Shown piece by piece: positions 56,343 to 57,388 of a stretch of 64,000 nt of DNA. Under the pieces are notes generated by a model, which did not search any database, had not been told where the DNA came from, and saw nothing but the letters and a program-made list of their open reading frames with translations. The DNA lies in contig JAUHXA010000028.1 in assembly GCA_030427245.1 (NCBI GenBank), positions 1 to 64,000 of the forward strand, read 5' to 3'. How positions within the stretch are numbered: the stretch's first letter is position 1; every line of letters starts with the position of its first letter. This DNA is from Bacteroidia bacterium (GTDB taxonomy: Bacteria > Bacteroidota > Bacteroidia > Chitinophagales > UBA2359). Made by a program: the position numbers and the translations under genes.

Positions 56343-57089
56343 TTATTTTTCCCACTTCTTCAATACGATATCCGACCCCGAATATTCATCGCTTGCATAC
56401 TCATGCCAATGCCTAATTCTGGGAATGTGAACTCCATTGAGGTCAATATTTCCTTCAAAATACAATCGTTCACCTTTGGTTGTATCTTCTGGAAAAACGA
56501 TTTCCAATCCTTTCAGTTTGTAAGAATCTTTGGCAATATAAATCACCCAATTTTTCGAGAACATGGCCTCCTTCAATTCGATAGGAATGAGATAACATTC
56601 TCGGTCATTGAAGTACTTCACTCCGACTTCTCCAATCTTGCTGACACTTTCATCATTTAAAGACATTGGCAAACCGTACATTAGGTGGTAAAAATCTCTG
56701 TAACCTAGGTTTCTTTCTGGCTTCAATCTGAATTTTTCGACCAATGAATCCACTATTTCTTCACTATCATCTAAATACACCTTGGCTTGTCCGTTTTCAT
56801 CAATAACGTGTTTGGATAGGTGCTGCTCTCTGTTTCTTATCAGTTCAAACGCTCCATTGGCATTGTTCAAGTGTACCTTAGAATATCTTGAAGGATTGCC
56901 AATTCTGGGTTCTTGTATATAAACAGACAGTTCCAGTTGATTCCATAGACCATTTGGGTCGTGTATAGATTGACTTTTGGAGAGAAGGTCAATGCCTTTT
57001 AACTGAGTCCGGTCATTGCTATTGCTTTGTTTGAAACAGGATGATAGCAAGAGTGTGAAGAGGATAGTATATCTAAAATAGAGTGTCAT
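56343..57089 (-). CDS. Putative lipoprotein (DUF6503-like)
   Basis: 248 residues with a lipoprotein signal (ILFTLLLSSC, lipobox cysteine at 18). The mature part begins KSQSIHDPNGLWNQLELSVYIQEP, then a long stretch of beta-rich sequence (FRDFYHLMYGLPM-like, KAMFSKNWVIYIAKDSYKLKGLEIVFPED) and a final HWHEYASDEYSGSDIVLKKW. This resembles DUF6503 lipoproteins of Bacteroidota, but I name it with caution. It lies 21 bases upstream of the phosphotransferase fragment on the same strand. Confidence 0.72.
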   Translation of the reverse strand: MTLYFRYTILFTLLLSSCFKQSNSNDRTQLKGIDLLSKSQSIHDPNGLWNQLELSVYIQEPRIGNPSRYSKVHLNNANGAFELIRNREQHLSKHVIDENGQAKVYLDDSEEIVDSLVEKFRLKPERNLGYRDFYHLMYGLPMSLNDESVSKIGEVGVKYFNDRECYLIPIELKEAMFSKNWVIYIAKDSYKLKGLEIVFPEDTTKGERLYFEGNIDLNGVHIPRIRHWHEYASDEYSGSDIVLKKWEK

Positions 57090-57153
57090 ATTTAGCTAAA
57101 GGCTTTTAAATAAGTATGTTGAGTTTCCAGAATGATTAATTTAATACTTTTTG

Positions 57154-57286
57154 CATACTACTATACAAAATGATTTTTGAACCACAAAAGTATCAAAAGG
57201 GCACAAAAGAGGTTATTGAATTTCAGGTCTTTACTTTTGTTTTCTTTGTGCCTTTTGTGGTTGAATTAAAAATGTACAGTAGTATG
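57154..57286. mobile_element. MITE-like element with 9-bp target duplication
   Basis: 133 bp. Left end CATACTACTATACAAAATG, right end (inverted) CATACTACTGTACATTTTT; both arms continue into inverted AACCACAAAAG blocks. Outside it are identical direct repeats TACTTTTTG at 57145-57153 and 57287-57295. No coding capacity. It looks like a recent or well-preserved non-autonomous element. The rest of the 57090-57510 spacer carries the terminator at 57389-57423 and no gene. Confidence 0.8.
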
Positions 57287-57388
57287 TACTTTTTGTTGCC
57301 TAAAACTAAACAAAAACACAAGAAATCAAAAAAGAATCCTAATTCCTGTTTACGCTTCCTCTCCCTTCGCATTTTTTTACCATAAAAA

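What the first reader, a model, noticed from the sequence alone, without database searches (positions are those of the whole stretch)
57145..57295. Clean MITE-like element with 9-bp duplication TACTTTTTG
A 133-bp non-coding element with CATACTACT/AGTAGTATG ends is flanked by identical 9-bp direct repeats, the strongest mobility signature in this window. No transposase here, so it would depend on one elsewhere that makes 9-bp duplications.
Basis: partly seen in the sequence, partly recalled or inferred. Interest (0 to 1): 0.6.

Follow-up and report, generated by a model that had tools for sequence, protein, structure and literature searches.

The report
Hairpin MITE with IS4-type ends
The 133-bp stretch is a real miniature transposon with at least 58 full copies in the parts of this bacterium's genome that were read, and its ends match those of a transposase-carrying element of the IS4 family in related bacteria, so it is a new family of a well-known kind of mobile element.

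Summary
Window 57154-57286 is a 133-bp element with 14-bp inverted ends (CATACTACTATACA / CATACTACTGTACA) between identical 9-bp repeats TACTTTTTG. The host genome holds at least 58 distinct full copies in the stretches read; 53 are exactly 133 bp and 38 have a perfect 9-bp duplication. The mobility reading is supported and the partner is identified in kind. The same ends (CAYACTACTGKACATTTT) and 9-bp duplications bracket short elements with 16 unrelated interiors in 17 Bacteroidota genomes. They also bracket a 1194-bp insertion sequence (genome G853) encoding a 372-aa DDE transposase of the IS4 family, which made its own 9-bp duplication. More distant relatives on Spirosoma, Bernardetia and Persicobacter plasmids have related ends and 9-bp duplications. 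No such insertion sequence was found in the host assembly: the local partner is lost, or missing because short collapsed contigs are not in it. Side result: the interiors are mostly hairpins, and the host's interior arms also occur without the ends as a 98-bp tandem array, which suggests that IS4-type ends captured pre-existing hairpin repeats. Verdict: real MITE, new family of a known kind, moderate interest.

The parts
57145..57153 (.). 9-bp target duplication, left copy TACTTTTTG
   Evidence: 9-bp duplications in 38 of 58 copies
57154..57167 (+). left terminal inverted repeat CATACTACTATACA
57168..57272 (.). interior: imperfect hairpin, arms AACCACAAAAG...GGCACAAAAG and CTTTGTGCCTTTTGTGGTT; the same arms occur without the ends as a 98-bp tandem array elsewhere in the genome
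57273..57286 (-). right terminal inverted repeat (reverse complement CATACTACTGTACA, followed inward by TTTTT)
57287..57295 (.). 9-bp target duplication, right copy TACTTTTTG
56343..57089 (-). context only: gene for a 248-aa protein with a DUF6503 match; the MITE lies 64 bp upstream of its start codon
57511..58665 (-). context only: 384-aa ORF upstream in the same direction; ends 224 bp before the MITE

Best explanation
A non-autonomous miniature transposon (MITE). A DDE transposase of the IS4 family binds the two CATACTACTGKACATTTTT-type ends, cuts the element out and pastes it into a staggered 9-bp target that is duplicated on repair. The interior codes for nothing and is a hairpin repeat not derived from the insertion sequence. 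Shown: the ends, the 9-bp duplications, the copy number, and the match of the ends to an IS4-family element in related genomes. Inferred: that this transposase (or a close relative now lost from, or missing in, the host assembly) moved these copies, and the cut-and-paste chemistry, which is established for studied members of the same family such as IS231A, IS10 and IS50 (PMC2266710 and general knowledge).
For: 58 distinct full copies, 38 with perfect 9-bp duplications, targets leaning to ATNNNNNAT. Same ends plus 9-bp duplication around unrelated interiors in 16 other genomes. Census of CAYACTACTGKACATTTT in the family of G315: 51 of 398 genomes, one hit of the reversed control pattern. A 1194-bp IS with ends CACACTACTGGACATTTT and a 372-aa ORF whose stop codon lies inside the right end; the protein hits NF033591 IS4 family (146 bits, cut-off 152) and PF01609 (66 bits, cut-off 23), with DDE residues and a Y-2-R-3-E-6-K signature. 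The IS made a 9-bp duplication, GTTTTGACC, seen at the two contigs that flank one copy. IS and MITEs with the same ends coexist in the complete chromosome G181. Distant relatives: Spirosoma CAGACTACTGGACA, Bernardetia TACAGTACTGGACA, Persicobacter CATACARCTAGACA, all with 9-bp duplications.
Against: No transposase with these ends was found in the host assembly: PF01609 gave three loci, none with these ends, and the exact-end hits are MITE ends. The host MITE has T where the IS has G at position 11 of the end. The flanks of the IS copy in G181 do not form a clean duplication and its gene is frameshifted. No empty site in a close relative was available.
Confidence: 0.87

Rival explanations
1. 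The MITE was moved by a different transposase family that also duplicates 9 bp and has convergent ends; the IS4 match is coincidental.
For: Position 11 differs (T in host, G in IS) and no partner is in the host assembly.
Against: A 14-18 base end plus the same duplication length is shared with an IS4-family element; G199 MITEs carry the T and G variants on opposite ends of one element, so both belong to one system.
Confidence: 0.08
2. A REP or REPIN-type hairpin repeat spread by a RAYT (Y1) transposase, or palindromic repeats without target duplication.
For: The interior is a hairpin and hairpin arms occur alone in tandem.
Against: 9-bp duplications in most copies and long terminal inverted repeats are not made by RAYT elements. 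It may still hold for the naked interior repeat, which I did not test.
Confidence: 0.02
3. Fossil family (compatible with the best explanation, differs on present activity): the element is a MITE of this system but no longer moves because its transposase is gone from the host.
For: No partner in the assembly; 12 of 58 copies match in fewer than 8 of 9 duplication positions.
Against: Copies average 96.8% identity to the consensus and 38 duplications are still perfect; the shortest of 100 contigs fetched is 2,245 bp, so a collapsed short IS could be missing from the assembly.
Confidence: 0.4

Closest known systems
IS4 family insertion sequences, ends most like subgroup IS4Sa (PMC2266710)
   Same: For the partner IS: DDE transposase with YREK signature, 1194 bp (range 1150-1750), ends CA with T at position 9, 9-bp duplication (range 8-10)
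   Different: The MITE has no transposase gene; the subgroup was judged from ends, size and duplication only, not from a transposase tree; identity to plasmid relatives is only about 32-36%
MITEAba12 of Acinetobacter (PMC6382973)
   Same: 113 bp, near-identical copies, 9-bp duplications, similarity to its IS only in the ends
   Different: Ends GGCTTTGTTGCACAAA and partner ISAba12; different ends, different partner, different phylum
MITEs of Porphyromonas gingivalis such as BrickBuilt (PMC4596501)
   Same: Bacteroidota; elements with similar ends and unrelated interiors
   Different: Ends GAGACCTTTGCA, most like ISPg1/ISPg9 (IS5 family in that paper), duplications irregular in length

Membership tests
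MITE | short, no transposase gene | tested here: met
   133 bp
MITE | terminal inverted repeats | tested here: met
   13 of 14 bases, conserved in copies
MITE | target duplication of constant length | tested here: met
   9 bp in 38 of 58 copies
MITE | many near-identical copies | tested here: met
   58 distinct full copies, mean 96.8% identity
MITE | ends match an autonomous element | tested here: met
   in related genomes; not found in the host assembly
MITE | movement in trans by that transposase | not testable with these tools
   needs an experiment
IS4 family (for the partner IS) | DDE transposase with Y-2-R-3-E-6-K | tested here: met
   YVMRWKIECLFKHLK in alignment; NF033591 146 bits, just under its cut-off of 152
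IS4 family (for the partner IS) | target duplication of about 10 bp (7-13) | tested here: met
   9 bp
IS4Sa subgroup | ends CA------T, 1150-1750 bp, 8-10 bp duplication | tested here: met
   CACACTACTGGACA, 1194 bp, 9 bp against Table 1 of PMC2266710
IS4Sa subgroup | transposase clusters with IS4Sa members | not tested
   no reference set of subgroup sequences was built
IS10 subgroup | ends begin CT | tested here: not met
   ends begin CA
REP/REPIN | no target duplication | tested here: not met
   9-bp duplications

The most novel reading that the evidence does not exclude
IS4-type ends in Bacteroidota act as a general vehicle that has repeatedly captured independent, pre-existing hairpin repeats, a different one in nearly every lineage, so that one transposase system spreads many unrelated palindromic repeats.
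Probability: 0.35. Interest if true: 0.6.

Novelty: new member of a known kind. Interest (0 to 1): 0.38.

Why it matters
It links an orphan MITE, and a set of short repeats with unrelated interiors scattered over Bacteroidota, to one group of IS4-family elements through their ends and 9-bp duplications. If hairpin capture is right, it offers an explanation for how some widespread palindromic repeats are carried around in these genomes, and it gives a simple search pattern (CAYACTACTGKACATTTT) for finding them.

Tried and rejected
Three PF01609 transposases in the host (L079, L080, L081) do not carry these ends (the L081 ends are CCGAGA-type). An apparent IS right end at contig C106 turned out to be another IS inserted inside a MITE copy: the same terminal sequence at three other contig ends continues into unrelated DNA. 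C134, C8 and other near-matches to the end are chance hits in or beside genes. Viral contigs with the end pattern are chance matches, mostly one recurring sequence context, and held no relative of the transposase. The genome-contig scan gave only single ends, two of which led to MITE-bearing genomes. Rfam gave only sub-threshold matches. Terminator role: the only terminator-like site nearby is outside the MITE. Joined flanks: the few hits in the sampled genome that span the junction (68-158 bp, 70-87% identity) were not followed up and I do not count them as empty sites. A search of papers for the end sequence found nothing.

Full report
Observation. Its ends match for 13 of 14 bases when inverted. 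It lies between two genes on the minus strand, 64 bp before the start codon of a DUF6503 protein gene and 224 bp after the stop of the gene upstream. The single strand folds with z -3.9 against shuffles.

Copies in the host. A search of the host genome (7.58 Mb, 187 contigs) gave 157 candidates and 40 scored copies. From all host stretches that were read I collected 58 distinct full copies with both flanks: 53 are exactly 133 bp, mean identity to the consensus is 96.8%, 38 have a perfect 9-bp duplication, 46 match in 8 or 9 of 9 positions; random pairing of flanks gives 1.2%. No copy has a perfect duplication of 6, 8 or 10-12 bp; one has 7. The duplicated targets lean to ATNNNNNAT.

Search for the partner in the host. 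Exact ends not belonging to the MITE were not found (the list is cut short). PF01609 found three transposase loci, none with these ends. The G853 transposase described below scores 66 bits with PF01609, so an intact relative in the assembly should have been seen. Of 100 host contigs fetched the shortest is 2,245 bp, so a short collapsed repeat may be absent from the assembly. One false lead, at contig C106, is another IS sitting inside a MITE end.

Same ends elsewhere. The exact 14-mer occurs in few other genomes of the order, but these hits, with two from a scan of named genomes (a Saprospiraceae MAG and a Bernardetiaceae MAG), led to elements with the same ends, 9-bp duplications and wholly different interiors. 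With the consensus CAYACTACTGKACATTTT, 51 of 398 genomes in the family of G315 have hits, with one reversed-control hit in the list. At phylum scale 3 of 296 well-assembled genomes hit, so the system is concentrated in some lineages. From loci in hand I extracted 41 elements with recognisable duplications; with the host element they fall into 16 interior families in 17 genomes. Families were separated by a blastn cut-off of 1e-3 on interiors, so very distant relationships could be missed.

The autonomous element. In G519 the end recurs at contig ends, a sign of a collapsed multicopy repeat, and reads into a common C-terminal peptide. In G853 a full 1194-bp element was recovered: ends CACACTACTGGACATTTT, ORF of 372 aa, stop codon within the right end. 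Its C-terminus is 63% identical to the G519 peptide over 46 residues. NF033591 (IS4 family) gives 146 bits, a little under its curated cut-off of 152; PF01609 gives 66 bits, over its cut-off. The YREK signature is present. Five further contig ends of G853 carry the same IS, and two of them share the flank GTTTTGACC in the right orientation, the 9-bp duplication of one copy. In G181, a complete chromosome, a frameshifted IS of 1193 bp and MITEs with the same ends coexist. Plasmid-borne relatives of Spirosoma, Bernardetia and Persicobacter, 32-36% identical, have related ends and perfect 9-bp duplications.

Placement. Table 1 of PMC2266710 gives IS4Sa: 1150-1750 bp, ends CA------T, 8-10 bp duplications; IS10: ends CT. 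The IS fits IS4Sa by these features and not IS10; a transposase tree was not made. MITEAba12 (PMC6382973) is a close parallel in behaviour: similarity to its IS only in the ends, 9-bp duplications. In P. gingivalis, MITEs with similar ends and different interiors have been described (PMC4596501), so exchange of interiors as such has a precedent.

Interiors. With 20 bases stripped from each end, 12 of 15 interior families tested fold with median z of -2 or lower against dinucleotide shuffles; the G199 family and two short G396 families do not. The host interior arms AACCACAAAAGGCACAAAG also occur without the ends in the host as a 98-bp tandem array on contig C48, and short matches occur in relatives that lack the MITE. 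I read this as capture of independent hairpin repeats by IS4-type ends. The opposite direction, loss of ends from MITEs followed by tandem growth, is not excluded.

How it works. Most likely the IS4-family transposase pairs the two ends, excises the element and joins it to a target cut with a 9-bp stagger. The ends, duplications and family assignment are shown; the chemistry follows from studied IS4-family members; movement of this MITE by this transposase is inferred. Whether the family still moves in the host is open.

Noticed in passing
L166 18994-19266 (host contig C48): 98-bp tandem array of the MITE's hairpin arms without IS4-type ends; a similar array with a period of about 137 bp occurs in G008 (L071).
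   Followed up: partly
L111 1-137 (host contig C106 left end): A different multicopy IS-like repeat, C-terminus TELQPIHIKILKLLDIEPKVYLNLAHHIQMFFSQNQVTET, is inserted within the right end of a MITE copy; no Pfam or NCBIfam match to the peptide.
   Followed up: partly
L079 700-3500 (host contig C146): A PF01609 transposase with CTTGACTTTGACAGTTG ends sits between long direct repeats that each include half a MITE copy and the same neighbouring gene end.
   Followed up: no
L080 444-671 (host contig C145): 73-nt inverted repeat with 74% complementarity inside a degenerate transposase region, possibly another small mobile element.
   Followed up: no
genomes G1006, G958, G305 and G397: Very high numbers of the IS4-type ends (93, 54 and 35 exact hits; 328 with up to 3 mismatches in G397); these genomes may hold recent bursts.
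   Followed up: no
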